The notes beneath the pieces are model-generated. The model worked only from the letters and a program-made list of their open reading frames with translations. It searched no databases and had not been told where the DNA came from. Positions 7,632 to 21,811 of a DNA stretch of 64,000 nt are shown in pieces; position 1 is the first letter of the stretch, and each line of letters opens with the position of its first letter. This stretch comes from Spirosoma pollinicola. Its GTDB lineage: Bacteria; Bacteroidota; Bacteroidia; Cytophagales; Spirosomataceae. The position numbers and the translations under genes are program-made. The stretch is taken from assembly GCF_002831565.1 (NCBI RefSeq), contig NZ_CP025096.1:3954501-4018500 (forward strand), read 5' to 3'.

Positions 7632-7755
7632 GGTGAATGTGTTTCGACCTTACATGGGCAGGCTGTTATTACGCCAAAGAAATCTTTTTTTTGCGTGATT
7701 TTGGTCTTAGCTTGGCGGCCATTATATGCGTTCAGTACAGGCACACGATCAGGCT

Positions 7756-10497
7756 ATGAAAAGTAACGTTGCGTCAATCGGCTATGGGTTGTTTACCCTG
7801 TTCGGTTTGTTTTTGTTGAGTGGATGCCACCAGTACGGCCCCATCGGTGGTAAGTCGGGCAAGATATCGTCGCACTACAGAACCGCCACCGACAACGGTC
7901 CGCTGGGTGATACGTCCCCCTTTTTGATGCCCTACAACCGGATTATTGACGGTGCAGGGCAAGCCGTTAGTTTTGGCGACGCCAGTGTTGAAAATCATAG
8001 TCTGGATGCCGTCTTGCTGCCCGACAAAAAAACGCTCGTTGTCGAAGATCGCTTTGGTATTGCTTTTTTCGACGTGAACAAACGTAAGCTCATCTCGCGA
8101 TGGGAGTATAACAAAGACGCAAAGCTGAGAGGGAGCATGAGTTCCTTCTCGGGCATAAAAGCCATCGTTCACCACGATTCGACCTATATTTTCTGGGGAG
8201 CCGGTGGAGGTCGGGAAAAACCCAACTCACGGGTAATGCAGGTTGTTTGGGACGGCACGCGCGCCCGACTCATCCGGGCTATTCCGTTCGCGGCCATTGC
8301 GCCCGCCACCATCGCCCTGCCAAATGAAGTGGTGGTGAAAGAGGAATCGGGTGAACTGATACTCTACACTGTTCTGAACGGCAATAATCAACTTGTTAAA
8401 GTGCGTGTCAGAGATCAACAAGTTATGTGGACGGTGCCTACCGGCGTAGCTCCTTTTGGCCTGACAATCCTGGGTACTAAAGCCTACGTTACCAATTGGG
8501 CCGGGCCCGTTCCCGATGCCGCCAACGGCTTCGAAACGGCGGGCATACCCTGGGGAAGCGCCTACATCGACCCAAAGACGGGCGCTATGGCGCGTGGAAC
8601 GGTATCCATTATCGACATTGCGCAAGGCAAACCAGAGCGCGAAATATCCGTTGGCCTACACCCGAACGCGATTATCAGCAGCCCCGATCAGCAGTTTTTG
8701 TACGTTGCCAATGGAAACAGCGATTATATATCTGTTATCAATGTTGGGACGCAGCAGGTCACGGATTCCATTTTTGTAGGACTTTTTAATCGCGGAAATG
8801 GCTATATCGGCAGCACACCCAATGCGCTCGCTATCAATCCGCAGGGAACGACACTTTATGTGGCCAATGGGATGGATAACGCGCTCTGCGTTGTTGAGCT
8901 AGGCGAAAAAGCATCGGCGGGCGGGAAGGGCCAGTCGAGCGTCAAAGGCTATATCCCGACTCAGGCATACCCGGCGGGGATTGTGCTGAACGGTACTGAG
9001 TTATACGTAACAAATCTGGAAGCCATTGGTGCCCGCGTTACCGAGCCGGTTGATCAGGGCGGGCAGGGGAGAAGTCTCGCGGGCGGGCTCAAGGCTTATA
9101 ATTCACACAAGCAACTGGCGTCGGTTTCGTTTATTCCGGTTCCGGATCAGCAACGGTTAGATGCCTATACCGAAAAGGTAAAAAAGCTCAGTCTTCAATT
9201 TCGACTGGCGTTGACCGAACAGGTGCCGAGGCCAGATATTACGCCGAAACCTGTACCTGAGCGCATTGGAGAGCCATCGGTGTTCAAACACGTGTTGTAC
9301 ATCATCAAGGAAAACCGTACCTACGACCAGGTGTTGGGCGATATGCCCCAGGGTGATGGCGTTCCCGAGCTTTGCATTTTTGGCGATAGCATTACGCCCA
9401 ACCAGCACCAGATTACCAAAGATTACATGCTGATGGACAACTACTATGTGTCGGGAAAATCATCGGCGGAGGGGCACCACTGGGCAAGTGCAGCCATGGT
9501 TACCGATTATACCGAACGGAGTGTACGGGCCTGGTTTCGGAGTTACCCGCACGTACTGTACGACGCTATGGTATACGATAAAAAAGGGTTGATCTGGAAT
9601 AACGCCCTCGATCACGGAAAAACAGTACGAATTTACGGAGAAGCCTGCTCCTGTACCTACAACAAAAAACAGTATAACTGGAGCAGTCTGTTTCAGCTAC
9701 GTCAGGAAAATAAACCCTTTTCGTTCACCAACGCCACCACCATTTCGCGGGTGAGGCCCATTCTGGCCATGAATTTTCCGGGCTGCGATGACGAAACCAT
9801 CAGCGACCAGATGCGCGCCGATGCCTTCATAAACGAACTGAACGAAACAGCCGCCAATCCCAGCGCCGACTTACCTAACCTGATGGTTATGTCGTTACCC
9901 AACGATCATACATCAGGCATGAGTCCGGGCTTTCCCGTTCCCCGCGCTATGGTGGCCGATAATGACCTGGCCGTAGGGCGTATTGTCGATGCGGTTACGC
10001 ATAGCCGGTTTGCGGCATCGACGGTTATTTTTATTACAGAAGATGACTCGCAGGCAGGATGGGATCATGTATCGGCTTATCGAACAACGGGTTATGTCAT
10101 TAGCCCGTACTCGCGTTTACAGAAAACCGTTCACACCAATTATAACCAGACATCGGTGGTGCGAACAATGGAACAGATTCTGGGCCTGCCGCCCATGAAC
10201 GTTATTGATGCTACGGCGCTGCCCATGTTCGACTGTTTTTCCGACAAACCGGATTTCTCGTTTGCCTACAACGCAATTCCCAACCGGGTTTCATTGACAG
10301 AAATGAATGCATCCCCAACAGGGCTGAAAGGGGCCTCACTGCGGTTTACGAACCAGTCGATACGCTACGGATTTCATCAGATTGACCGTGGGCACGACGA
10401 CCTCCTCAATCGAATTTTATGGTTTACGGCCAAAGGCAAACAGCGATATCCGGCTCACCTGGCTGGTTCTGCCGACGACGATGATGACGATGATTAG
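7756..10497 (+). CDS. Lipoprotein with YncE-like propeller and phosphoesterase domain
   Basis: About 913 residues. I start at the ATG at 7756, where a lipoprotein signal begins and reaches the lipobox LLSGC (Cys24); the ATG at 7726 would add ten polar residues ahead of it. Residues 80-470 form a seven-bladed-type propeller with YVTN/YncE-like repeats (FLYVANGNSDYISVINV, TLYVANGMDNALCVVEL). The C-terminal half is a phosphoesterase domain of the alkaline phosphatase superfamily, with ENRTYDQVLGDMPQGDG, SSAEGHHWASAA, LPNDHTSGMSPG and DDSQAGWDHV as probable metal-binding segments. It probably hydrolyses a phosphoester in the periplasm or on the cell surface; the substrate is unknown. The protein ends in seven consecutive Asp residues. 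Its stop overlaps the convergent sigma-factor stop by four bases. Confidence 0.88.
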   Translation: MKSNVASIGYGLFTLFGLFLLSGCHQYGPIGGKSGKISSHYRTATDNGPLGDTSPFLMPYNRIIDGAGQAVSFGDASVENHSLDAVLLPDKKTLVVEDRFGIAFFDVNKRKLISRWEYNKDAKLRGSMSSFSGIKAIVHHDSTYIFWGAGGGREKPNSRVMQVVWDGTRARLIRAIPFAAIAPATIALPNEVVVKEESGELILYTVLNGNNQLVKVRVRDQQVMWTVPTGVAPFGLTILGTKAYVTNWAGPVPDAANGFETAGIPWGSAYIDPKTGAMARGTVSIIDIAQGKPEREISVGLHPNAIISSPDQQFLYVANGNSDYISVINVGTQQVTDSIFVGLFNRGNGYIGSTPNALAINPQGTTLYVANGMDNALCVVELGEKASAGGKGQSSVKGYIPTQAYPAGIVLNGTELYVTNLEAIGARVTEPVDQGGQGRSLAGGLKAYNSHKQLASVSFIPVPDQQRLDAYTEKVKKLSLQFRLALTEQVPRPDITPKPVPERIGEPSVFKHVLYIIKENRTYDQVLGDMPQGDGVPELCIFGDSITPNQHQITKDYMLMDNYYVSGKSSAEGHHWASAAMVTDYTERSVRAWFRSYPHVLYDAMVYDKKGLIWNNALDHGKTVRIYGEACSCTYNKKQYNWSSLFQLRQENKPFSFTNATTISRVRPILAMNFPGCDDETISDQMRADAFINELNETAANPSADLPNLMVMSLPNDHTSGMSPGFPVPRAMVADNDLAVGRIVDAVTHSRFAASTVIFITEDDSQAGWDHVSAYRTTGYVISPYSRLQKTVHTNYNQTSVVRTMEQILGLPPMNVIDATALPMFDCFSDKPDFSFAYNAIPNRVSLTEMNASPTGLKGASLRFTNQSIRYGFHQIDRGHDDLLNRILWFTAKGKQRYPAHLAGSADDDDDDD

Positions 10498-11045
10498 TTA
10501 AACATAGAGGCACCACACAATTGGCGCACTTTATTCCGAGAGCGTTTCAGCCGCATTTTTACCGCACTCTCTTTCAGGTTTAGCTGTAGGCCAATCTGGC
10601 TCACCGGCATGTCATCCTGATACTTCATTTTTAACACCGTGGCTTCCTGCGGAGAAATTTTGTTCATAACGAGCGAAAGGCGCTGTAATTCATAGTCGAC
10701 CTTTTCATTATCATCAGCACTTGTGCTGGAGTAGTCGATATCGTCTGTTAGCTGAGTCGTTGTCAGGCGTTTCGCCCGTTTGATCTGGTCGAGGCAATAG
10801 TTGTAGGAAACGCTGTATAACCAGGTTGAAAACGTTGAACGTCCCTGAAAGCTATCTAAGCGGGCAAAGATTCTAATGAAAATATCATGTGTAAAATCCT
10901 GCGCCTGTTCTGAATCCTTAGTAATTGAAAAGCATTGTTTATAGACTTTACCCACATACCTGTTGTACAGGCTCTCGAAACAGACTGAAGAATTCGAGTT
11001 GAGGTATTGACTGATCATCTCTTCGTCACTCACTTTAAGATTCAT
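10494..11045 (-). CDS. ECF-type RNA polymerase sigma factor
   Basis: A 183-residue sigma-70 family factor of the extracytoplasmic-function group: only regions 2 and 4 are present. Region 2 shows TKDSEQAQDFTHDIFIRIF and the -10 binding helix with STFSTWLYSVSYNYCLD. Region 4 shows a helix-turn-helix, MPVSQIGLQLNLKESAVKMR. The promoters it serves cannot be told from the sequence, and no anti-sigma gene is adjacent. It is transcribed away from the H-NOX gene, with a 242-base AT-rich divergent region between them, so shared regulation is possible. The gene ends inside the last codons of the convergent phosphoesterase gene. Confidence 0.93.
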   Translation of the reverse strand: MNLKVSDEEMISQYLNSNSSVCFESLYNRYVGKVYKQCFSITKDSEQAQDFTHDIFIRIFARLDSFQGRSTFSTWLYSVSYNYCLDQIKRAKRLTTTQLTDDIDYSSTSADDNEKVDYELQRLSLVMNKISPQEATVLKMKYQDDMPVSQIGLQLNLKESAVKMRLKRSRNKVRQLCGASMFN

Positions 11046-11287
11046 TGTTAGTTGTAGTTATGGGTTTGTAAACTCTTAGTTTATGTGTTTGGCAGTACAA
11101 ACTTGGTTTTAAATGACAATTTGTATCACTAGTTTTCGATGAACTGTATGTTTTACACGTTTTTTGGTGTAAAAATATATTGTATAGCTAATTTTAGTTA
11201 AAATTTAAGATAATTTCATAAGTAATTGTTACTATATTGCGTAATAAATTAATTATCATATAAGATAAAATAGGGTTATCTATATCA

Positions 11288-11827
11288 ATGAAGGGTATCG
11301 TTTTTACTGAGTTCTTGGAAATGATCGAAGATAAATTCGGTTATGAGTTGGTAGATCAGTTACTTGAAGAGAGCGACTTGCCCTCCGGGGGGATTTATAC
11401 CGCTATTGGTACATACGACCATGCCGAAATGGTTACGCTGGTCTCTGGCCTGAGTAAACGAATGGATATACCGGTTCCTGATTTGCTTCGGTCGTATGGA
11501 CAGTATATGTTCACGTCATTTACCAGAAGTTATCGGCCCTTCGTTGAACGGGCCGATTCGGCCTTTGCCCTGCTCAGTTCTGTTCAGCACTACATTCATG
11601 TGGAGGTGCGAAAATTATATCCAGACGCAGAATTACCCCACTTTACGATCGAGCAGCCCGCAGAAAATCACCTTCGGATGCACTATATATCAGAGCGGAA
11701 ACTGGCTGATTTTGCCCATGGGCTCATTGAAGGATGTCTGGCAACATTTGGTGAAACGGCCACCATCACCAAAACAAATCTTACCGACGACGGGAGTCAG
11801 GTCTTATTTGATATACGGAAAGAATAA
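11288..11827 (+). CDS. H-NOX haem nitric oxide sensor
   Basis: A 179-residue haem-NO/oxygen-binding (HNOB) protein of typical length. It begins with the family signature MKGIVFTEFLEMIE. The proximal haem ligand is His104 in YIHVEVRKLYP, and the haem-propionate clamp YxSxR is present as Tyr133-Ser135-Arg137. In oxygen-binding H-NOX proteins a distal Tyr sits five residues after that Arg; here it is Phe142, which favours NO over oxygen by the known rule. H-NOX proteins usually control a histidine kinase or cyclase encoded beside them, and a hybrid kinase starts only three bases after the stop codon. The protein therefore most likely senses NO and switches that kinase. Confidence 0.95.
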   Translation: MKGIVFTEFLEMIEDKFGYELVDQLLEESDLPSGGIYTAIGTYDHAEMVTLVSGLSKRMDIPVPDLLRSYGQYMFTSFTRSYRPFVERADSAFALLSSVQHYIHVEVRKLYPDAELPHFTIEQPAENHLRMHYISERKLADFAHGLIEGCLATFGETATITKTNLTDDGSQVLFDIRKE

Positions 11828-11830
11828 GAC

Positions 11831-14689
11831 ATGGAGGAGGATATAGATTTGCTGAAAAGGAGGCTCGTTCGTGAAAAGACAGCTCGGTTGCAGGCCGAAG
11901 CTATTCTCGAAAAGAAAGCGTTGGCGCTGTACAACGCGAACGAACAACTCCTGCACTTGAATGAAAATCTTGAACAGCAGATTCGCGATAAACTCGCCGA
12001 ACTTCAGGAAAGTGAACAACGCTATCGACAACTTATCGAGTCCGTTCAGGATATTATCTACAAGATTTCTCCCAATGGATTTTTTACGTTTGTCAGCCCC
12101 GTTGTCGAAAAAATATTAGGGTACACACAATCCGAATTTCTGGGTAAACACTTCACCGAATTCATTCAGGCTGGTTACCGCATCTCGCTTATTGACTTCT
12201 ATCAGTCTATGATGAAGCAGCGGCAGGATAGTACCTACAATGAGTTTCCGGTGGTTGCCAAGGATGGTAGTATCGTCTGGATCGGGCAAACCGTTAGGCT
12301 GATTGTGGTTGATGGGCATATTGAGGAACTGGTGGCGGTAGCGCGGGATGTGTCAGATCGGAAATTGGCCGAAACAGAGCTGGAAACAACCCAAACCCGG
12401 CTCGCAACGCTTATCACCAACTTACAATCGGGGGTGATGGTCGAAGACGAAAACGGACGGGTCATTTTAGCGAACCAGCTTTTCTGCGATATTTTTCAGA
12501 TTCCCCTCACCGCCGATGAACTGATAGGCTACAATTGTTACGAAGCACGGCAGCAGGTAAAATCCCTGTTTGTACAGCCCGAAGCCTTTGTGGATCGGAT
12601 GAATGAGCTGCTGGCCAATCGCAAGGCCTGTGTTGGCGAGGAAATCACTATGGTGAACGGTCGCACGATGGAGCTTGATTATATCCCTATTTTTCTGGAC
12701 GATCATCAATACATGGGCCATTTGTGGAAATACACAGATGTGACCGAAAAGTACCTGGCACGCGAGCTTATCCGCCGAAGTGAAGAAAAGTACCGGGGCA
12801 TCATGAATAACATGGAACTGGGGCTCTTTGAAGTTGACAATAACCAGATCATTGTTCGATCCTACGAGCGCTGCTGTAAAATGCTGGGCTACGCAGAGGA
12901 GGAGATGGTGGGTAAAAACGCATCCGAACTGTTGGTACCCGCCGAATTTCGGAATGTGGTAGAGCGGCAGCAAACAGAACGTCAAAAGGGCCTGGCTGGC
13001 TCCTATGAGCTGCAGTTGATCAAGAAAGATGGTAGCCGTATCTGGGTACTGGTTAGTGGTGTACCCATTCTCGATGAAAATGGCGTGATCGTTGGCTCTA
13101 TGGGCATTCATTATGATATGAACGAGCGCAAACAGCTTGAGCAGGAACTGGCCAAGGCCAAACACTTTGCCGAAGAAGCGCAAGAGGCCGAAAAACAGTT
13201 TTTTGCGAATATGAGTCACGAAATCAGAACGCCACTCAATGCCATTATTGGTATGTCGCATCTGCTTTTCGACACGCAGCCATCCACGCAGCAACGCGAA
13301 TACATTGATATCCTGAAAACATCGGCCGACTTCCTGCATAGCCTTATTTCCGATTTGCTGGACATGACAAAAATTGAAGCCGGACGCATTGAAGTTCACG
13401 CCCGGCCATTCGATCTGGCCGGATTGCTTCGCAGTACGCAGAAAGTATTTGAAATGAAACTTCATGATCGCCCAATATCAGTCAATGTGATGCTGGATTC
13501 CCGGATCAACGACGACTTTATCGGTGACGATGTCATGCTGAACCAAATTCTCATGAATCTGGTCGGGAATGCCGAAAAGTTTACCGAAGAAGGCCAGATT
13601 CAAATTATAGCCAAAGTCAAAAAAGAAGAAGCAGGTCGGCATTGGATCGAATTCACTGTTTCGGATACGGGTGTTGGTATACCCGATGAAAAACTGGACA
13701 TGGTATTCCAGAAGTTTAAGCAGGTAAACCCCCAGGGATTCAAGCACAAAGGCACAGGCCTTGGCCTTGCTATTACAAAAGAACTGGTTGAGATTCAGGG
13801 CGGGACTATTTCTGTGTGGAGTCAGATCGGCTACGGCAGCACCTTCACCTTTGTTCTGCCTTATGGTAAGGCGTTGCCATCTGCCGAACCGAGTAAAACA
13901 ACCGACAAACAGTTGCGCATTGTAGATGAACTAAAGACGTGCAACGTATTAATCGTTGAAGACAACCTTATGAATCAGACGTATATCGGAAGTTTGCTCA
14001 ACAAATGGAATGTTCCCTATACCATGGCGTCGGATGGGAAGCAGGCGGTTGAGAAAGCGAAAAACAAGCAATTCGACATCATTCTGATGGACATCCAGAT
14101 GCCCATCATGAATGGGTATGAGGCCACTGTGGCTATAAGGAGCACGCATAACCCCAATCAGAATACCCCCATTATCGCCCTTACGGCCTCGGCCATGCTC
14201 GATAACAAGAGCGTAGCGATGGAGGCAGGGATGAACGATTTTCTGACCAAGCCATTTGAGCCAGCCCAACTTTTAACGTTGCTACAGCAGTTTGCGCCTA
14301 CCACGCAAATAGAAAGCGAGGGTTGTATTTTATTCGACAAGGCATTGGATCGACAGCGTTTATCGGAATTGTATGGAACCGATACGGGCTATGCCGCCGA
14401 AATGTTCGCTATGTTTCTGGTCGATATTGTTCCTGATATTCGTACCCTGCCAGACTTATGTCAGGAACAGAAATGGCCGGAACTGGCTAGTGCTGCCCAC
14501 AGACTTAAGCCGACATTAGGGATGGTAGGGTTGTCGTTGCTGGAAGAAAAGATGAGACAATTAGAATACCATTCCCGTCAGGACATTAATCAGCAATGGC
14601 TTGAGGGGCATTGCCATGATCTTATGGAGGAGATTGATAAAGTACTACCCATTTTGGAAACAGAGCTGCAAAAGCTTTCTCTCGTATGA
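11831..14689 (+). CDS. H-NOX-associated hybrid histidine kinase (PAS, HisKA, receiver, HPt)
   Basis: A 952-residue cytoplasmic hybrid kinase without membrane segments. An N-terminal coiled coil (1-65) precedes three PAS domains (about 66-185, 190-310, 320-440). The HisKA H-box FFANMSHEIRTPL carries the phospho-accepting His463. The HATPase has NQILMNLVGNAEKF, DTGVGIPDEKL and GTGLGLAITKEL. A receiver domain follows with Asp754 in ILMDIQMP, then a C-terminal HPt domain with His890 in AAHRLKPTLG. Three bases separate it from the H-NOX gene and four overlapping bases (ATGA) join it to the LytTR regulator gene, so the three are one operon. The layout suggests a phosphorelay His463-Asp754-His890-Asp55 of the regulator. 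A soluble kinase next to H-NOX fits the known control of kinases by NO-bound H-NOX. Confidence 0.95.
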   Translation: MEEDIDLLKRRLVREKTARLQAEAILEKKALALYNANEQLLHLNENLEQQIRDKLAELQESEQRYRQLIESVQDIIYKISPNGFFTFVSPVVEKILGYTQSEFLGKHFTEFIQAGYRISLIDFYQSMMKQRQDSTYNEFPVVAKDGSIVWIGQTVRLIVVDGHIEELVAVARDVSDRKLAETELETTQTRLATLITNLQSGVMVEDENGRVILANQLFCDIFQIPLTADELIGYNCYEARQQVKSLFVQPEAFVDRMNELLANRKACVGEEITMVNGRTMELDYIPIFLDDHQYMGHLWKYTDVTEKYLARELIRRSEEKYRGIMNNMELGLFEVDNNQIIVRSYERCCKMLGYAEEEMVGKNASELLVPAEFRNVVERQQTERQKGLAGSYELQLIKKDGSRIWVLVSGVPILDENGVIVGSMGIHYDMNERKQLEQELAKAKHFAEEAQEAEKQFFANMSHEIRTPLNAIIGMSHLLFDTQPSTQQREYIDILKTSADFLHSLISDLLDMTKIEAGRIEVHARPFDLAGLLRSTQKVFEMKLHDRPISVNVMLDSRINDDFIGDDVMLNQILMNLVGNAEKFTEEGQIQIIAKVKKEEAGRHWIEFTVSDTGVGIPDEKLDMVFQKFKQVNPQGFKHKGTGLGLAITKELVEIQGGTISVWSQIGYGSTFTFVLPYGKALPSAEPSKTTDKQLRIVDELKTCNVLIVEDNLMNQTYIGSLLNKWNVPYTMASDGKQAVEKAKNKQFDIILMDIQMPIMNGYEATVAIRSTHNPNQNTPIIALTASAMLDNKSVAMEAGMNDFLTKPFEPAQLLTLLQQFAPTTQIESEGCILFDKALDRQRLSELYGTDTGYAAEMFAMFLVDIVPDIRTLPDLCQEQKWPELASAAHRLKPTLGMVGLSLLEEKMRQLEYHSRQDINQQWLEGHCHDLMEEIDKVLPILETELQKLSLV

Positions 14690-15378
14690 ATCTGACTTGT
14701 ATTATCGTTGAAGATGAACCTATGTCCCGCAGATCGCTGCAACGGCTTTGCGAGCAACATAGCTCATTAGAGGTACTGGGCGTATTTGATAATGCGATCC
14801 CGGCACTTGATTACCTGGCTGAGCATGAAGTAGATTTGATATGGCTCGATGTCGAAATGCCTGGGTTGTCGGGATTTGATTTGCTGGAGCAACTGCCCGC
14901 TATTCCGTATGTTATCTTAACCACCAGTAAGATAGAATATGCGTTTGAGGCCTTTCAGTACAACGTGACTGATTACCTCAAGAAGCCAATAACCCTGCCC
15001 CGATTCAACATAGCTGTCGAAAAGGTACTTGAGTTACACGCACGTCCCAAATCAACCTCGTCTGACGAGCGAAAGGAAATATACATTAAAACAGATGGTC
15101 GCTATATTCGACTGCCTTTTGACAGTATTTCCTACGTTGAAAACACCGGCGATTACGTCAAGATCTTTACCAACAGCCAAACGCATGTGGTGTATACAAC
15201 CATGAAGTACCTCGAAGAAAAATTAGGGCTTCAGTTTCTGCGGGTGCACCGTTCTTATATCGTACACCTCGATAAGATTATTGATATAGAAGATAATACG
15301 TTGGTTATTAATAATAAAGTAATTCCTATCAGTCGGGCTAATAAGCCGGAGTTAATGAATCGACTTAATTTATTATAA
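14686..15378 (+). CDS. LytTR-family response regulator
   Basis: A 230-residue regulator. The N-terminal receiver has the acidic pocket VEDEP and the phospho-accepting Asp55 in LIWLDVEMPG. The C-terminal half is a LytTR DNA-binding domain (about 128-228) with IYIKTDGRYIRLPFDSISYV and FLRVHRSYIVHLDKI. Its start codon overlaps the stop of the hybrid kinase, so it is the expected output of the H-NOX pathway. The nitric oxide synthase gene begins 192 bases downstream on the same strand and is an obvious candidate target; that is inference. Confidence 0.95.
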   Translation: MNLTCIIVEDEPMSRRSLQRLCEQHSSLEVLGVFDNAIPALDYLAEHEVDLIWLDVEMPGLSGFDLLEQLPAIPYVILTTSKIEYAFEAFQYNVTDYLKKPITLPRFNIAVEKVLELHARPKSTSSDERKEIYIKTDGRYIRLPFDSISYVENTGDYVKIFTNSQTHVVYTTMKYLEEKLGLQFLRVHRSYIVHLDKIIDIEDNTLVINNKVIPISRANKPELMNRLNLL

Positions 15379-15570
15379 GCTAATTCGTTTATTTAAAAGT
15401 TTATTATTGAATCTATTGGATTATTTGTCATAGTCAAAAAAATATATTGGTAATATTATAGTTTACGAACGTACTAATTATTAAAGTAGTTAATATAGGG
15501 GAAAATTTGTGCCGACTATCCCGCGCCCTTACCTCTTTTCCTATTGTCTACTTAACCTCACAACCTTGCT

Positions 15571-18500
15571 GTGTCGCTCTCAACGAATGTTTCTGATAAA
15601 GCTCTCCAGGCAGATCTGTTACGTACAATTCGTATCACGGAGGTAATAGTCCTTGACTATCCCACGAATGGGTACGAATTTCGTGGTCTGATTCGGGCGC
15701 ACGATGATGCGGGCGTTATTGTACGGGAGCAACTTCTTCAGGCAAGACGCAAACCGGAGTGGCTGGTGAATGGGCGGTATCAGGGGCCGGGAGAGCTGTA
15801 TATTATCGTGCAGTTTCGACCTGAGGGTAGCGAGCGATGGCACGGGATCGACCAGTTAACGGTACCACTCCGGAACCTGACCGATGGGCAGAGCAGTACA
15901 GATATTTTTTTACCATTACGGGGTTGGGATGAGGCTCCTCATATGCAGATTCGTATTCGGATCACCAACGAGCAGCATGAACACCGCATCGAGACGCCGT
16001 TAATACAATCACTCAACGACATCGCAGACTTAACTATAACAGGCTGTCCCTTTTTTGCGCCTAAAACTGCACCCGAACCATCGGTCAGAAAAACGCCTGT
16101 ACCCGATATTCCGGATACCGTAATTGACCTGCCGCACTTAACAGCTCCTGAGCAGGTATTGGTTAAAGATGGCTGGAACAAGTTTCTGGCCTATCAGGAT
16201 ATGCTTATCGAGTTGTTTTTTGAGCGATTGCTCCATGAAGAACCCGAGTTGATTGACCTGTTCGGCGATGCTATTGATCTGGTGCCAGGTTACTTTTCCG
16301 CTCTTTTTGATGTAAGCGTTCGGCGACTGATGCCGCATAGCGAACGAATACTGCGCGAAAGCTACCGGGGCATCTACCCTGAACCAGCCGAAGGATTTAA
16401 AACAGTCAATGACTATGTTGGGCTACTAGCCGATCTGGGTATGCAGCCCACGCATTGGCTGAAGGCTCGCCAAGCCTGGGTCTGGGTGTTACAGCAGATT
16501 CCACACCTCGAAGAATATGATCGGGAAAACCTTGCCAAAGGTGAAGGCTCAGCCCTGTACCGGTTTTTTACGATAGCCATTCTGGGGCCGGCGCTGGAAG
16601 CATCCCGGCATTACGCCGAGGCTCTAACGCCCGAGATGATTCGCCTGATGCGACAGGCCGGCGACCGGCTGGCGGCCGATGCCCGCGTTATTGGTACAGA
16701 TTTTTACCAAATCCTGTTCCAGACGCACCCCGACATTATACCCTATTTTAGTCGTACGGATATTGACGGCCTGACCGAACATTTGATGCAGGCTGTTGCG
16801 TTTCTGGTTCGGTCGCTGGACAACGGCATCAACATCGTTCAGGAACTGCGCGACCTGAGCCAGATACACACTAACTTTTCGGTGCCGCCGGAGGCCTACC
16901 CGAAACTGGTTGGGCCAATGATGAGCGTACTGAAAAAGTACATTCCTGAGTTTACTGTCGAACAGGAACATGCCTGGGAAATTCTGCTGACTCGCGTAAC
17001 CAACGTACTGCGCCAGCCCATGATCAACCAGCAGCGTATACTGGCGCAGGCGAAAGACTATATCGATCAAATTAGCCAGGAACTAGCCTGGGATGCCGCT
17101 GATTGCGACCGTCGCTGGAGTGAAATCAAGCTCGAGATTCAGGCCACCGGCAGCTATACCCATACCTACGAAGAACTGGCCTATGGTGCCCAGTTAGCCT
17201 GGCGTAACTCGTCAAAGTGTATCGGGCGGATTTCCTGGCGTAATATGATCGTCAGGGATTTGCGCCACGTTACAGACCCCGATGAGATGTTTCGCGAATG
17301 CGCCGAACACCTGCGTATGGCCACCAACGGGGGGAATGTGCAGATTGTCATGAACGTGTTTCGTCCCAAAAAGCCGCTGGAACGGTGGGGACCGCGTATC
17401 TGGAACGCGCAGTATATTCGTTTTGCGGCCTATGAGCGGGAAGATGGTTCGGTGCTGGGCGACAGGGCCAATCTGGCACTAACGAAAACCCTCATCCGAC
17501 AGGGATGGACACCCCCAACGCAAAAAACGGCTTATGATACGCTGCCTCTCGTGATCGACGTGCCCGGTCAGGCACCAAAGATGTACCAGTTCGGCGACGA
17601 CGATGTGCTGAAGGTGCCCATCGAGCATCCGGCTTATCCGGCTGTTGCTGCCCTTGACATGAAGTGGTGTGCGGTACCGGCTATTTCTAATTTCAAGATG
17701 GAAATAGGGGGAATCCAGTATGGCTGTATCCCATTCAATGGCTGGTTCATGGAAACCGAAATTGCCCGGAATCTTTGGGAAGATGGCCGTTACGAGAAAG
17801 CCAGTGACATTGCCAGGGCCATTGGCCTGGATACGTCAAGCGAACAAACGCTCTGGCGCGACCGTGCGTTTCTGGAGTTGAACGCGGCTGTGCTGCACTC
17901 GTTTTCCAAAGCGAGGGTAACACTGGTCGATCACCAGACGGCGGCCCGCCAGTTTTTGACGCATGACCTGCGCGAAAAGCGGGCCGGTCGCGAGTGCCCG
18001 GCCCAATGGTCGTGGGTGGTGCCTTCGGCGGGGGGGAGTGTAACGCCCGTCTGGCACCACGAAATGCGCGATTTCTTCCTCAGTCCCAGTTACCATTATG
18101 CCGCCGACAGATGGGTGGTGATTTACGATGAATTGATGGCCAGCGATGACGTGGCTGGCAGCGATCTGGCAGGTACCCAAGTGCATGTTCAGGCTCACCG
18201 TCCCGATCGTACGACTGCCCCGGAGCATCGTCCCCGGCGCGTGCTCATTCTCTATGGTTCAGAAACAGGCACCGCCGAAAGCTACGCCCGAAAAACAGCG
18301 CGACGGCTAAGCCGGTATCAGCCCCGTGTGATGGCCCTCGACGAATATGATGTATCCTGTCTGGGTCAGGAAGATTTGCTGCTTGTGGTTACGTCGACAT
18401 TCCGGGATGGCGATTTGCCGGGTAATGCCCAGAAATTTCAGGCCCGGATTCTGGCACAGCCGCCGGGAAAATTCCGGGAATTGAATTTTTCGGTGATGGC

Positions 18501-20136
18501 GCTGGGAAGCACTATTTATCCGCATTTCTGTGCGGGCGGGGCAACGCTGGATCGTGAGCTGGCGCGTGTAGGCGGTAACCGTGTCATCACCATGCATAAA
18601 GGCGATGAGATTAGAGGTCAGGCCGATACATTTCGACAATGGCTCGACCTTGTTGCCCGCCTATTGGGCGAAGATCCAACCAGTGCCGACTTATCGACTA
18701 CCGCCAGCAGCCAACTGGCCGTCTCGTTTTTAGCATCTCATCAGGTGCCAGCAACAGACAGTAAAATACGCCAGCAACTGTTGCCCGGCGTTGTTGTTCC
18801 AATTGTCGAAAATAGAGAGTTGCTGAAGGAGGTTATTATTGGAAGTCGCTCAACGCGCTTTATTTCGCTGAACATTAGCGGGACTGATCAGACCTACGAA
18901 ACCGGCGACCATGTGGCGATCTATCCGCATAACCCACCCGATTTGGTACAACGTATGGCCAGTCGCCTGAGAATTAATCCGGATGCCTGGTTCACAACGT
19001 CATTAGTCAATAGCTCCGGACACGCGATTGATGGAGAACATGCGTATCCCGAGCCTGTCAGGGTAGGGCAGGTGTTGACCGAAGATCTGGACCTGACCAT
19101 TCGCGAACCCTACGACGAATTGTTAAATGCGCTCCTGAAATCTGTCGAATCGCCAATCGAAAAAGAACGGCTGGAAGTCTGGCTGGACATACTAAATGGC
19201 CAAAACAATCTTGACGCCTGCGTCGCTCTGAAAAAGCATCTTGCCGATACCTTTCCTACCATAGTCGATTTGCTGGATGTTTTTCCGTCGGCACACCTGT
19301 CGTTTGCGCAGCTTATTGAGTTATTGCCTAAACAGAAGCCGCGTTTTTATTCCATATCATCCTGCTCGCTGGTGCACCCGGAACAGATTCACCTCACAGT
19401 GGGCGTGGTCCAGATAACGACCGATGCGGGCAAAGTTATTTCGGGTTTATGTTCTAACTATCTGGCCGGGCTGGAGCCGGGGGCTACTGTTCGAATAGGC
19501 GTTCGTTCGTCTACATTTCGTCCTCCCGTCGACCCGCACGCCCCTATGCTGATGGTTGGGGCGGGTACGGGCCTGTCGCCATTGCTTGGTTTTCTGCACC
19601 ATCGCGAGGTTCAGCTTCAGGCCATACACAGAGCCAACCCTTATTCTCTAAATGACTATGAGACAATAACACCAATGCCGGCGCATATCGGTCATGCCCG
19701 CTTGTTTTTTGGCTGTCGAAATCTGAACGACTACTTATATCAGCACGAGTTGGAAACCTGGCACGAAGCCGGTGTACTGACGCATCTGGATGTGGCTTTC
19801 TCTCGACTCGATGAAGAGAAAATATACGTTCAGGACCTGATAGGCCAGCAAAGTAATGGCCTTTGGGAAGTGCTCTCTCAGCCCGATTGTCATTATTACG
19901 TTTGTGGTGATGCCCAGATGGCCGATGAAGTTTTCGACGTACTGATGACCATTGCCAAAACAAAAGGTGGCCTGTCGCATGCCGAAGCTATCAATTTCTT
20001 CCGGCAAATGCAGTCCGAAAATCGCTTTGTGATGGATGTGTGGGGCGTGTTAATCAACGCTAAGAAATCACTCATCGACTTACAGGAAACGAAATACGCG
20101 CAGGGCGAACGCTGGCTGGAACGAGTGTCGGTGTAA
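15571..20136 (+). CDS. nos: Nitric oxide synthase with N-terminal globin modules and fused reductase
   Basis: A 1521-residue self-sufficient NO synthase. Residues 1-150 form an unrecognised beta-rich domain. Two globin-like modules follow (about 191-340 and 350-490): the second has a proximal His433 in SQIHTNF, while the first appears to lack it. The oxygenase domain (about 495-870) has the haem thiolate Cys550 in NSSKCIGRISW, the arginine-binding Glu730 in WFMETEIA, and the pterin/dimer segment WSWVVPSAGGSVTP. The reductase has an FMN flavodoxin (LYGSETGTAESYA, near 895), an FAD module (RFYSISS at 1258) and an NADPH loop (GAGTGLSP, near 1330). No clear calmodulin-binding linker is visible between them. 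The start is the GTG at 15571, because an in-frame stop lies at 15553-15555 and no ATG occurs before about 15940. Most bacterial NO synthases lack the reductase; globin-NOS-reductase fusions are known from a few cyanobacteria. It makes NO from arginine, and the globin part may oxidise NO to nitrate. Confidence 0.95.
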   Translation: MSLSTNVSDKALQADLLRTIRITEVIVLDYPTNGYEFRGLIRAHDDAGVIVREQLLQARRKPEWLVNGRYQGPGELYIIVQFRPEGSERWHGIDQLTVPLRNLTDGQSSTDIFLPLRGWDEAPHMQIRIRITNEQHEHRIETPLIQSLNDIADLTITGCPFFAPKTAPEPSVRKTPVPDIPDTVIDLPHLTAPEQVLVKDGWNKFLAYQDMLIELFFERLLHEEPELIDLFGDAIDLVPGYFSALFDVSVRRLMPHSERILRESYRGIYPEPAEGFKTVNDYVGLLADLGMQPTHWLKARQAWVWVLQQIPHLEEYDRENLAKGEGSALYRFFTIAILGPALEASRHYAEALTPEMIRLMRQAGDRLAADARVIGTDFYQILFQTHPDIIPYFSRTDIDGLTEHLMQAVAFLVRSLDNGINIVQELRDLSQIHTNFSVPPEAYPKLVGPMMSVLKKYIPEFTVEQEHAWEILLTRVTNVLRQPMINQQRILAQAKDYIDQISQELAWDAADCDRRWSEIKLEIQATGSYTHTYEELAYGAQLAWRNSSKCIGRISWRNMIVRDLRHVTDPDEMFRECAEHLRMATNGGNVQIVMNVFRPKKPLERWGPRIWNAQYIRFAAYEREDGSVLGDRANLALTKTLIRQGWTPPTQKTAYDTLPLVIDVPGQAPKMYQFGDDDVLKVPIEHPAYPAVAALDMKWCAVPAISNFKMEIGGIQYGCIPFNGWFMETEIARNLWEDGRYEKASDIARAIGLDTSSEQTLWRDRAFLELNAAVLHSFSKARVTLVDHQTAARQFLTHDLREKRAGRECPAQWSWVVPSAGGSVTPVWHHEMRDFFLSPSYHYAADRWVVIYDELMASDDVAGSDLAGTQVHVQAHRPDRTTAPEHRPRRVLILYGSETGTAESYARKTARRLSRYQPRVMALDEYDVSCLGQEDLLLVVTSTFRDGDLPGNAQKFQARILAQPPGKFRELNFSVMALGSTIYPHFCAGGATLDRELARVGGNRVITMHKGDEIRGQADTFRQWLDLVARLLGEDPTSADLSTTASSQLAVSFLASHQVPATDSKIRQQLLPGVVVPIVENRELLKEVIIGSRSTRFISLNISGTDQTYETGDHVAIYPHNPPDLVQRMASRLRINPDAWFTTSLVNSSGHAIDGEHAYPEPVRVGQVLTEDLDLTIREPYDELLNALLKSVESPIEKERLEVWLDILNGQNNLDACVALKKHLADTFPTIVDLLDVFPSAHLSFAQLIELLPKQKPRFYSISSCSLVHPEQIHLTVGVVQITTDAGKVISGLCSNYLAGLEPGATVRIGVRSSTFRPPVDPHAPMLMVGAGTGLSPLLGFLHHREVQLQAIHRANPYSLNDYETITPMPAHIGHARLFFGCRNLNDYLYQHELETWHEAGVLTHLDVAFSRLDEEKIYVQDLIGQQSNGLWEVLSQPDCHYYVCGDAQMADEVFDVLMTIAKTKGGLSHAEAINFFRQMQSENRFVMDVWGVLINAKKSLIDLQETKYAQGERWLERVSV

Positions 20137-20168: not shown

Positions 20169-20283
20169 AAAAAAAGAGGTTTAACCACAGAGGCACAGAG
20201 AGCACAGAGGTTTAAACGGGCTAATTTCTTCCCCATTTAAACCTCTGTGCTCTCTGTGCCTCTGTGGTTAAACCTCTTTTTTT
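20169..20283. repeat. Perfect 48-bp inverted repeat of the ACCACAGAGGCACAGAG family
   Basis: The arms 20169-20216 and 20236-20283 are exact reverse complements around a 19-base loop, and the outer ends are A7/T7 runs. The core contains ttaaccacagaggcacagag. A shorter relative lies at 39524-39606, so this is an interspersed family. It sits just after the NO synthase gene and could also act as a terminator on both strands. Confidence 0.9.
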
Positions 20284-20841: not shown

Positions 20842-21672
20842 TCAGTTCGGTTTTGCTTTATCGAAATACTGCCGCATAAACAGCATCTGGTAGGTTACCG
20901 CATTGGTCCAGTAATTCCAGTTGTGGCCACCGGGGCGGGTGATGTAGTCATGGGCAATGTTACGTTCCAGGAGTTTGTCGTGTAGGTTGTTATTGACCCG
21001 AAAGAAAAAGTCTTCGCTGCCGCAGTCAATAATCAACGCCAGGGCACCCGGCGTGAGTAGATGGAGTAAATTTATGACCGTATTTTGCTCCCATCGCTCC
21101 GGAAACTGCGCATACGTACCCAGCCGTTTTGCCATGTCCCAATTGCTGGGAAACGGCCGGATGTCGACCCCGCCACTCATGCTGCCCGCCACGCCAAAAA
21201 CAGACTGATGTCTGAATGCCAGATAAAGTGCTCCATGCCCGCCCATACTCAGGCCCGTAATGGCGCGTCCTGCTCGATTTTTGATGGTTTTATAATGGCT
21301 ATCAACCCAGTTAACCAGTTCATCGGCTACATAGGTTTCGTATTTAAAAGAGGGGTCGGCGGGGCTATCGAAATACCAACTGCCAACATTGCCATCGGGA
21401 CAAACGATAATCACGTTGTGCAGATCGGCGGCATTTGTGATCGTGGGTACTTTTTTGATCCAGTCGCTGTAGTTGCCGCCGTAGCCATGAAGCAAGTATA
21501 CAACTGGTAGCTCCTGCCCGGCAGTGTACGAATCGGGCGTGACAATAACCGCTTTGATCATTTTCTTCATAGACGAGCTATACGTAGCGACCGTGTCGAC
21601 GGTAGCCGCCCCAATGGAGAAATGGAAAAAGGCAAACAGGCCGAAAAGAAGTAAGGTACGTAGCAAATTCAT
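20842..21672 (-). CDS. Secreted alpha/beta-hydrolase esterase
   Basis: A 276-residue esterase of the esterase-D/feruloyl-esterase-like family. The chosen start (21672) opens directly on a signal peptide, MNLLRTLLLFGLFAFFHFSIG; an ATG seven codons upstream is an alternative. The nucleophile elbow is GLSMGGHG (Ser about 142), the oxyanion-hole region is YLLHGYGGNYSDW, a catalytic Asp is likely in IIDCGSEDFFF, and the His is in RPGGHNWNYW. It is probably periplasmic or secreted and hydrolyses a carbohydrate ester or similar substrate; the exact substrate cannot be read from the sequence. Confidence 0.88.
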   Translation of the reverse strand: MNLLRTLLLFGLFAFFHFSIGAATVDTVATYSSSMKKMIKAVIVTPDSYTAGQELPVVYLLHGYGGNYSDWIKKVPTITNAADLHNVIIVCPDGNVGSWYFDSPADPSFKYETYVADELVNWVDSHYKTIKNRAGRAITGLSMGGHGALYLAFRHQSVFGVAGSMSGGVDIRPFPSNWDMAKRLGTYAQFPERWEQNTVINLLHLLTPGALALIIDCGSEDFFFRVNNNLHDKLLERNIAHDYITRPGGHNWNYWTNAVTYQMLFMRQYFDKAKPN

Positions 21673-21811
21673 GGGAGTAAGATTACGAAACACCCCGAAA
21701 TAAGGCTACTTGATAGTATCGCTACCCATTTGAGGTGAATATTTCCGGGGAAAGGTGAGAGTGGGACTGTACTGTGGTTGATGAAGCGGTTCGTAACAGG
21801 TTTGTAAATAA

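What the first reader, a model, noticed from the sequence alone, without database searches (positions are those of the whole stretch)
11288..20136. Self-contained NO module: H-NOX sensor, hybrid kinase, LytTR regulator and NO synthase in one locus
H-NOX with its kinase is a known pair, and bacterial NO synthases are known, but the sensor, the full phosphorelay and the enzyme that makes the ligand lie here in line on one strand within 9 kb. The LytTR regulator is 192 bases from nos. This suggests an endogenous NO feedback circuit rather than sensing of outside NO only.
Basis: partly seen in the sequence, partly recalled or inferred. Interest (0 to 1): 0.9.

Follow-up and report, generated by a model that had tools for sequence, protein, structure and literature searches.

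The report
NO receptor and NO synthase operon
In bacteria of the genus Spirosoma, the genes for a nitric oxide receptor, its signalling relay and an unusual enzyme expected both to make and to destroy nitric oxide sit together as one inherited unit, which suggests that the cell watches its own nitric oxide, although no control of the enzyme by the receptor has been shown.

Summary
The synthase is a six-domain enzyme of the Synechococcus syNOS type, whose relative also oxidises NO to nitrate. In 14 of 14 NOS-bearing genomes of the genus (36 genomes) the regulator is directly upstream of nos, in 13 with H-NOX on the same contig; in 6 of 14 the gap is 25-46 nt, so nos is probably co-transcribed. 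Two related Rhodobacteraceae MAGs carry another H-NOX-kinase pair (H-NOX about 25% identical) divergently beside the same NOS type. Cyanobacterial and oxygenase-only NOS genes that I examined are not linked. Against a dedicated loop: six relatives keep the sensor operon without nos; relatedness-aware testing is not significant; no LytTR-like site found in 15379-15570; the conserved site near H-NOX probably serves the divergent sigma gene. A bacterium with both NOS and H-NOX has been described (Silicibacter TrichCH4B; recalled, paper not held). Functional coupling likely; feedback unproven. New variant of known parts.

The parts
11288..11827 (+). H-NOX (HNOB) haem NO sensor, His104 and YxSxR (133-137)
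   Evidence: Pfam PF07700 E 3.8e-42; best solved relatives 6ocv, 6bde, then 2kii/4u99; residues
11831..14689 (+). Hybrid histidine kinase, PAS (3 stretches)-HisKA-HATPase-REC-Hpt (His463, Asp754, His890)
14686..15378 (+). REC-LytTR response regulator (Asp55)
15571..20136 (+). syNOS-type NO synthase, 1521 aa, GTG start
   Evidence: match to PDB 9q05 (syNOS) over residues 6-1517, 1613 bits; a GTG is also the first start codon at that place in most C2-bearing relatives
15571..15990 (+). NOS C2-like N-terminal domain, by alignment to syNOS residues 1-134 (weak identity, no Pfam match)
   Evidence: no blastp match in 4 of 14 genus homologues
16123..16605 (+). NOS pseudoglobin domain, by alignment to syNOS
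16606..17025 (+). NOS globin domain, CD1 Phe393, F8 His433 (NO dioxygenase in syNOS)
   Evidence: Pfam Globin 1.3e-11
17029..18114 (+). NOS oxygenase domain, haem Cys550, Trp725, Glu730; GWFMETE motif
   Evidence: Pfam NO_synthase
18247..19932 (+). NOS reductase: flavodoxin, FAD-binding, NAD-binding
   Evidence: Pfam
10494..11045 (-). Divergent ECF sigma factor, part of the conserved block
   Evidence: Pfam; intact in 12 of 14 NOS genomes, in two pieces in L058, no tblastn match in L048
11135..11167 (+). Conserved element TTCGAYRAACNG-N4-TTT-N6-TTTTTNGG; minus strand reads ACCAAAAAA-N12-ACAGTTCAT, LytTR-like (consensus recalled); probably the sigma gene's control site
15379..15570 (+). Regulator-nos gap; no conserved LytTR-like element, no terminator-like site; one weak sigma-70-like match on + at 15431-15459
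20169..20283 (.). 52-nt inverted repeat after nos; a dispersed palindromic repeat that could also end transcription

Best explanation
The block is an inherited NO sensor-effector module. H-NOX binds NO and sets the activity of the kinase next to it; phosphate passes His463 to Asp754 to Hpt His890 to Asp55 of the LytTR regulator, which acts on DNA. The NO synthase is the last gene of the same unit: probably co-transcribed with the sensor in species with a 25-46 nt gap, and in the window either read through from the regulator or started from its own promoter in the 192-nt gap. The enzyme, by homology with Synechococcus syNOS, makes NO at the oxygenase domain and can burn it to nitrate at the globin domain, with the C2 domain choosing between the two under Ca2+. 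The sensor therefore reports net NO (own output plus outside NO) and adjusts a regulon that includes its own unit. Shown: gene order, domain content, conserved residues, conserved linkage, a second linkage in another phylum. Inferred: NO binding, phosphotransfer, Ca2+/C2 switching in this protein, and any effect of the regulator on nos; the sign of such control is unknown.
For: 14 of 14 NOS-bearing genomes of the genus have the regulator directly upstream of nos, 13 of 14 with H-NOX on the same contig and strand. Gap 25-46 nt in 6 of 14. Flanks turn over while the block stays: the upstream phosphoesterase (7726-10497) was matched in 1 and the downstream esterase (20842-21693) in 4 of the 13 other NOS genomes (2 of the 13, G205 and G207, lie on short contigs where flanks cannot be seen). 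In the genus NOS was never found without H-NOX: 14/0 against 6/16 (Fisher 1.3e-5, relatedness ignored). In Rhodobacteraceae, H-NOX and a HisKA-HATPase-REC kinase lie divergently beside a syNOS-type NOS in L083 and L086, although their H-NOX is about 25% identical to the window's while the oxygenase is 63-68% identical. dN/dS is low in all NOS domains in four pairwise comparisons where it could be computed (0.05-0.19; synonymous sites near or at saturation). syNOS chemistry and C2 switch: PMC12922734 (abstract and sections 4, 10, 14).
Against: Six of 20 H-NOX-bearing genomes of the genus keep the H-NOX-kinase-regulator operon without nos, as does one genome of another genus (L070). On a one-gene (carB) tree the co-occurrence rests on 3 supported independent pairs, sign test p 0.25: within the genus, linkage can be plain inheritance. 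No LytTR-like element in the regulator-nos gap. The Rhodobacteraceae case is two related MAGs, so one event; two further syNOS-type loci there end at contig edges, and a further genome of that family with NOS pieces (G501) has its H-NOX 2 Mb away. Three of 3 cyanobacterial genomes with six-domain-sized NOS, 5 of 5 other cyanobacterial genomes with NOS matches that I checked, and 6 of 6 other Cytophagales show no linkage. No expression data.
Confidence: 0.55

Rival explanations
1. The sensor operon is a general NO or nitrosative-stress system and nos is a hitch-hiker that landed behind it once in the genus and stayed by inheritance; no functional coupling.
For: Sensor operon without nos in 6 of 20 H-NOX genomes of the genus and in one genome of another genus; the nos-less loci form one clade (100/98), so few events are needed; independent-pair test not significant.
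Against: Flanks replaced while the block is intact; short gaps in 6 of 14; separate H-NOX-NOS neighbourhood in Rhodobacteraceae.
Confidence: 0.25
2. The coupling is protective: outside NO sensed by H-NOX induces the block because the globin/FNR half of the synthase removes NO as an NO dioxygenase; arginine-driven NO synthesis is secondary.
For: Globin domain with Phe393 and His433; the syNOS globin has NO dioxygenase activity (PMC12922734); globin present in 13 of 14 homologues.
Against: One homologue (L055, a MAG) has no globin and no reductase but keeps pseudoglobin-oxygenase; the oxygenase has the lowest dN of all domains in four comparisons.
Confidence: 0.2

Closest known systems
Silicibacter (Ruegeria) sp. 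TrichCH4B NOS and H-NOX signalling (Rao, Smith, Marletta 2015 mBio; title seen in reference lists; content recalled; paper not held)
   Same: A bacterium with both NOS and H-NOX, in which the cell's own NO acts through H-NOX, a histidine kinase and response regulators (recalled); [quoted passage not shown]
   Different: Output there is c-di-GMP (recalled); I could not check whether its NOS is of the syNOS type or lies by H-NOX; here the genes form one unit with a LytTR regulator
Synechococcus PCC 7335 syNOS (PDB 9q05/9q06; PMC12922734, PMC6104048)
   Same: Same domain order and homology over residues 6-1517 (1613 bits); 58% identity over globin+oxygenase
   Different: The words H-NOX and operon do not occur in either paper's main text; window enzyme reads GWFMETE for GWYMGTE at the arginine site; C2 not detected in 4 of 14 genus homologues
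Spirosoma linguale globin-NOS (PMC6104048, PMC7400543, PMC4648414)
   Same: Same enzyme class, same genus
   Different: Passages that I saw describe the protein only, not the H-NOX/kinase/LytTR neighbourhood
H-NOX/histidine kinase two-component systems (reviews PMC9500659, PMC6195638; passages)
   Same: H-NOX gene next to a kinase gene
   Different: Partners named there are c-di-GMP enzymes and kinases, with quorum sensing and biofilm outputs; here a LytTR regulator and an NO synthase
Animal NOS and soluble guanylyl cyclase (recalled)
   Same: NO made by a reductase-fused NOS and read by an H-NOX-type receptor
   Different: No cyclase; the relay is a phosphorelay, and the genes are in one unit

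Membership tests
syNOS-type multidomain NOS | Oxygenase with haem Cys and arginine-site Trp/Glu | tested here: met
   Cys550, Trp725, Glu730; Pfam. The Tyr after the Trp is Phe here
syNOS-type multidomain NOS | Fused flavodoxin-FNR reductase | tested here: met
syNOS-type multidomain NOS | Haem globin (CD1 Phe, F8 His) plus pseudoglobin | tested here: met
   Phe393, His433; pseudoglobin by alignment
syNOS-type multidomain NOS | N-terminal C2-like domain | tested here: met
   alignment to syNOS from residue 6; weak identity here and no Pfam match; no structure was predicted
syNOS-type multidomain NOS | Ca2+-switched NO synthase / NO dioxygenase activity | not testable with these tools
   needs purified enzyme
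H-NOX two-component system | H-NOX with proximal His and YxSxR next to a histidine kinase | tested here: met
H-NOX two-component system | NO binding changes kinase activity | not testable with these tools
   needs protein work
NO feedback circuit (regulator controls nos) | Conserved linkage of sensor and nos in relatives | tested here: met
NO feedback circuit (regulator controls nos) | Regulator binding site at the nos promoter | tested here: inconclusive
   none found: 0 of 13 gaps within 6 mismatches of the conserved element; the regulator's true site is unknown, and in short-gap species the promoter would lie elsewhere
NO feedback circuit (regulator controls nos) | nos expression depends on NO or on the regulator | not testable with these tools
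   needs mutants and transcript measurement

The most novel reading that the evidence does not exclude
One transcription unit encodes an NO receptor, its relay and a synthase that can switch between releasing NO and burning it, so that the cell measures and sets its own NO level; this pairing of syNOS-type enzyme and H-NOX arose at least twice (Spirosoma and Rhodobacteraceae) with unlike receptors.
Probability: 0.35. Interest if true: 0.75.

Novelty: new variant of a known kind. Interest (0 to 1): 0.55.

Why it matters
How widely bacteria use their own NO as a signal is open; the one case I can name (Silicibacter TrichCH4B, recalled) has c-di-GMP output. A unit that holds receptor, relay and a make-or-burn synthase, with natural variants that lack nos, lack C2, or lack globin and reductase, makes the question directly testable.

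Tried and rejected
LytTR site at the nos promoter: looked for and not found. Half-site matches to the recalled consensus WMMGTTNRK occur in the gap (15396, 15465), but the window holds 76 against 63.6 expected.

Conserved element 11135-11167 as an H-NOX/nos operator: first taken as support, then demoted. In the whole genome there are 4 exact matches and 2 with 1-2 mismatches, this one included; the same search with the pattern read backwards gave 4 at up to 3 mismatches, so weak matches mean little. Of the 5 others, 4 lie 97-99 nt upstream of ECF sigma paralogues (54-59% identical to 10494-11045) and one (L138) does not. The element is kept where nos is absent. A LytTR-domain protein lies by one of these sigma paralogues (L140).

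Co-occurrence statistics: Fisher p 1.3e-5 is not corrected for relatedness; tree-based pairs are too few to reach significance. That tree used 34 of 36 genus genomes (no usable full carB in G198; G207 had a fragment, fetched and not used; G213's split gene went in as its first piece). The H-NOX/kinase/regulator tree left out G205, the second H-NOX loci L060 and L061, and the other-genus loci L068, L069, L071-L075, which were only scanned by tblastn.

Wider search for H-NOX by NOS: NOS in 14 of 292 cyanobacterial genomes (10 over the cut-off), 3 of 394 of the Rhodobacteraceae family, 13 of 390 of the order (7 in the genus). H-NOX was then sought in 14 of these genomes and the 5; 6 cyanobacterial genomes with short or sub-threshold NOS matches were not followed. 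The named-genome scan used two peptide patterns and missed genus genomes that one search found, so it is not a census. Of 14 plasmid records with NOS, 5 were opened; none had an annotated H-NOX within the 8-9 kb shown.

Papers: searches. None of the listings, abstracts or passages that I saw reports an H-NOX-NOS gene neighbourhood, but I opened only 11 papers in part, and the library lacks most subscription papers. For that reason I lowered interest from 0.62 to 0.55 and interest if true from 0.85 to 0.75, and changed the statement that NOS and H-NOX had been studied apart. I also withdrew an argument that the element decays where the sigma gene is broken (one search does not bear it out).
Full report
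What is there. The four ORFs are at the stated coordinates, in line on the + strand, with gaps of 3, -4 and 192 nt. Pfam gives HNOB; PAS (3 stretches), HisKA, HATPase_c, Response_reg and Hpt; Response_reg and LytTR; and NO_synthase with flavodoxin, FAD-binding, NAD-binding and globin domains. Residues expected for haem binding, phosphorelay and NO synthesis are present. The genome is one contig of 8.79 Mb with one NOS and two H-NOX genes; no homologue of this kinase or regulator was found in the 19.5 kb around the second H-NOX (L060).

The enzyme. It matches the Synechococcus PCC 7335 NOS over residues 6-1517 (PDB 9q05, 1613 bits). In that protein the order is C2, pseudoglobin, globin, oxygenase, flavodoxin, FNR; the globin is an NO dioxygenase, Ca2+ moves the C2 domain from oxygenase to globin, and a C2-less construct has no NOS activity (PMC12922734, abstract and sections 4, 10, 14). 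The globin-NOS of Spirosoma linguale was already known as a protein (PMC6104048 section 5; PMC7400543 and PMC4648414 passages). All 11 Spirosoma sequences in alignment A1 read GWFMETE where syNOS reads GWYMGTE at the arginine site. Of 14 genus homologues, 3 (L047, L049, L054; the first and last are near-identical) lack a detectable C2 domain and one (L055, a MAG) is reduced to pseudoglobin-oxygenase. Since C2 is needed for NOS activity in syNOS, these are natural test cases.

Conservation of the linkage. NOS occurs in 14 of 222 genomes of the family, all 14 in the window's genus, which has 36 genomes. H-NOX occurs in 53 of 222, 20 of them in the genus. In all 14 NOS genomes the LytTR regulator lies directly upstream of nos; in 13, H-NOX and kinase precede it on the same contig and strand; in G205 the sequence breaks inside the kinase. 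The regulator-nos gap is 25-46 nt in 6 of 14 and 154-312 nt in 8 of 14. Four relatives (L046, L048, L051, L058) keep the window's downstream esterase gene; in the four other NOS loci whose downstream ORFs I listed (L049, L050, L053, L054), other genes follow. Counts in the genus: NOS with H-NOX 14, H-NOX alone 6, neither 16, NOS alone 0. Fisher p is 1.3e-5, but on a carB tree of 34 genomes each trait needs 5 changes and only 3 supported independent pairs exist (sign test p 0.25). The six nos-less sensor operons form one clade in the sensor tree (100/98) and in the carB tree (84/97), so one loss, or one line that never gained it, would do.

A second neighbourhood. A pattern-based scan of named genomes returned 13 loci: 8 Spirosoma, 4 Rhodobacteraceae, 1 Nostoc. 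In two Rhodobacteraceae MAGs (L083, L086) H-NOX and a hybrid kinase (HisKA-HATPase-REC by Pfam in L086; by sequence in L083) lie directly beside nos, divergently. Their H-NOX proteins are 62% identical to each other and about 25% identical to the window's, whereas the oxygenase is 63-68% identical, so the sensor was probably not carried over with the enzyme. Two others cannot be judged: L084 is a 3.4 kb contig filled by nos, and in Rhodobaculum claviforme nos begins near one contig end while an H-NOX match begins 107 nt from the start of another contig, which would fit the same arrangement, though that genome has further H-NOX pieces. In G501, a further genome of the family with two oxygenase pieces, H-NOX is 2 Mb away. 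In the oxygenase tree Rhodobacteraceae and Spirosoma are sisters apart from cyanobacteria (94/91, not starred).

Where it is not linked. Of three cyanobacterial genomes with six-domain-sized NOS, G226 and G743 have no H-NOX and G719 has it on another contig; five other cyanobacterial genomes with NOS matches had none (4) or one on another contig (G636). Six Cytophagales genomes outside the genus with oxygenase-sized NOS have no H-NOX (4) or have it on other contigs (2). Five opened plasmid NOS loci show no annotated H-NOX nearby. So, as far as sampled, the linkage belongs to the syNOS type outside cyanobacteria, not to NOS at large.

Control sites. An element TTCGAYRAACNG-N4-TTT-N6-TTTTTNGG lies between the sigma gene and H-NOX; of 20 loci 11 match exactly and 19 within 2 mismatches, against 0.01 expected in the window at up to 3 mismatches. 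On the minus strand it resembles a LytTR tandem site (consensus recalled). Elsewhere in the genome it mostly precedes sigma paralogues (4 of 5), so it most likely belongs to the divergent sigma gene; the backward-pattern control gave 4 loose matches against 6. It remains possible that the LytTR regulator drives that sigma gene and the H-NOX operon together. The regulator-nos gap has no such element in 13 of 13 gaps tested (G205's was not tested), no terminator-like site and no notable fold; one weak sigma-70-like match lies there, in a scan that found 20 against 13 expected. After nos comes a 52-nt inverted repeat, part of a dispersed repeat with 19 half matches in the genome; it may also stop transcription.

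What is known. Reviews place H-NOX next to kinases and c-di-GMP enzymes (passages). I recall, and could not read, that Silicibacter sp. TrichCH4B was described in 2015 as a bacterium with both NOS and H-NOX in which own NO acts on biofilm; a review passage agrees as to NOS and biofilm. So sensing of own NO by H-NOX is not new as an idea; new here are the single unit, the LytTR output and the syNOS-type enzyme.

Verdict. That the sensor relay and the enzyme work together is more likely than not.

Noticed in passing
20169-20283: 52-nt inverted repeat, 98% complementary, folds at about -94 kcal/mol; a dispersed palindromic repeat with 19 half matches in the genome.
   Followed up: partly
L055 (minus strand of the contig): NOS homologue of 566 aa that keeps only pseudoglobin and oxygenase, behind the same regulator.
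   Followed up: partly
L047, L049, L054: NOS homologues with no detectable C2 domain, 1362-1370 aa; two of them (L047, L054) also have a kinase shortened to 709 aa.
   Followed up: partly
L052, 4724-5262: H-NOX split into two overlapping frames in G199; frameshift in the gene or in the assembly.
   Followed up: no
10494-11045 and L137, L139, L140, L141: ECF sigma paralogues (54-59% identical), each with the same LytTR-like element about 90-99 nt upstream; one has a small LytTR-domain protein nearby.
   Followed up: partly
L060, 9498-10046: Second H-NOX of the genome, with no homologue of this kinase or regulator in the 19.5 kb around it.
   Followed up: no
17740-17760: GWFMETE at the arginine site, shared by all 11 Spirosoma sequences aligned, against GWYMGTE in syNOS.
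   Followed up: no
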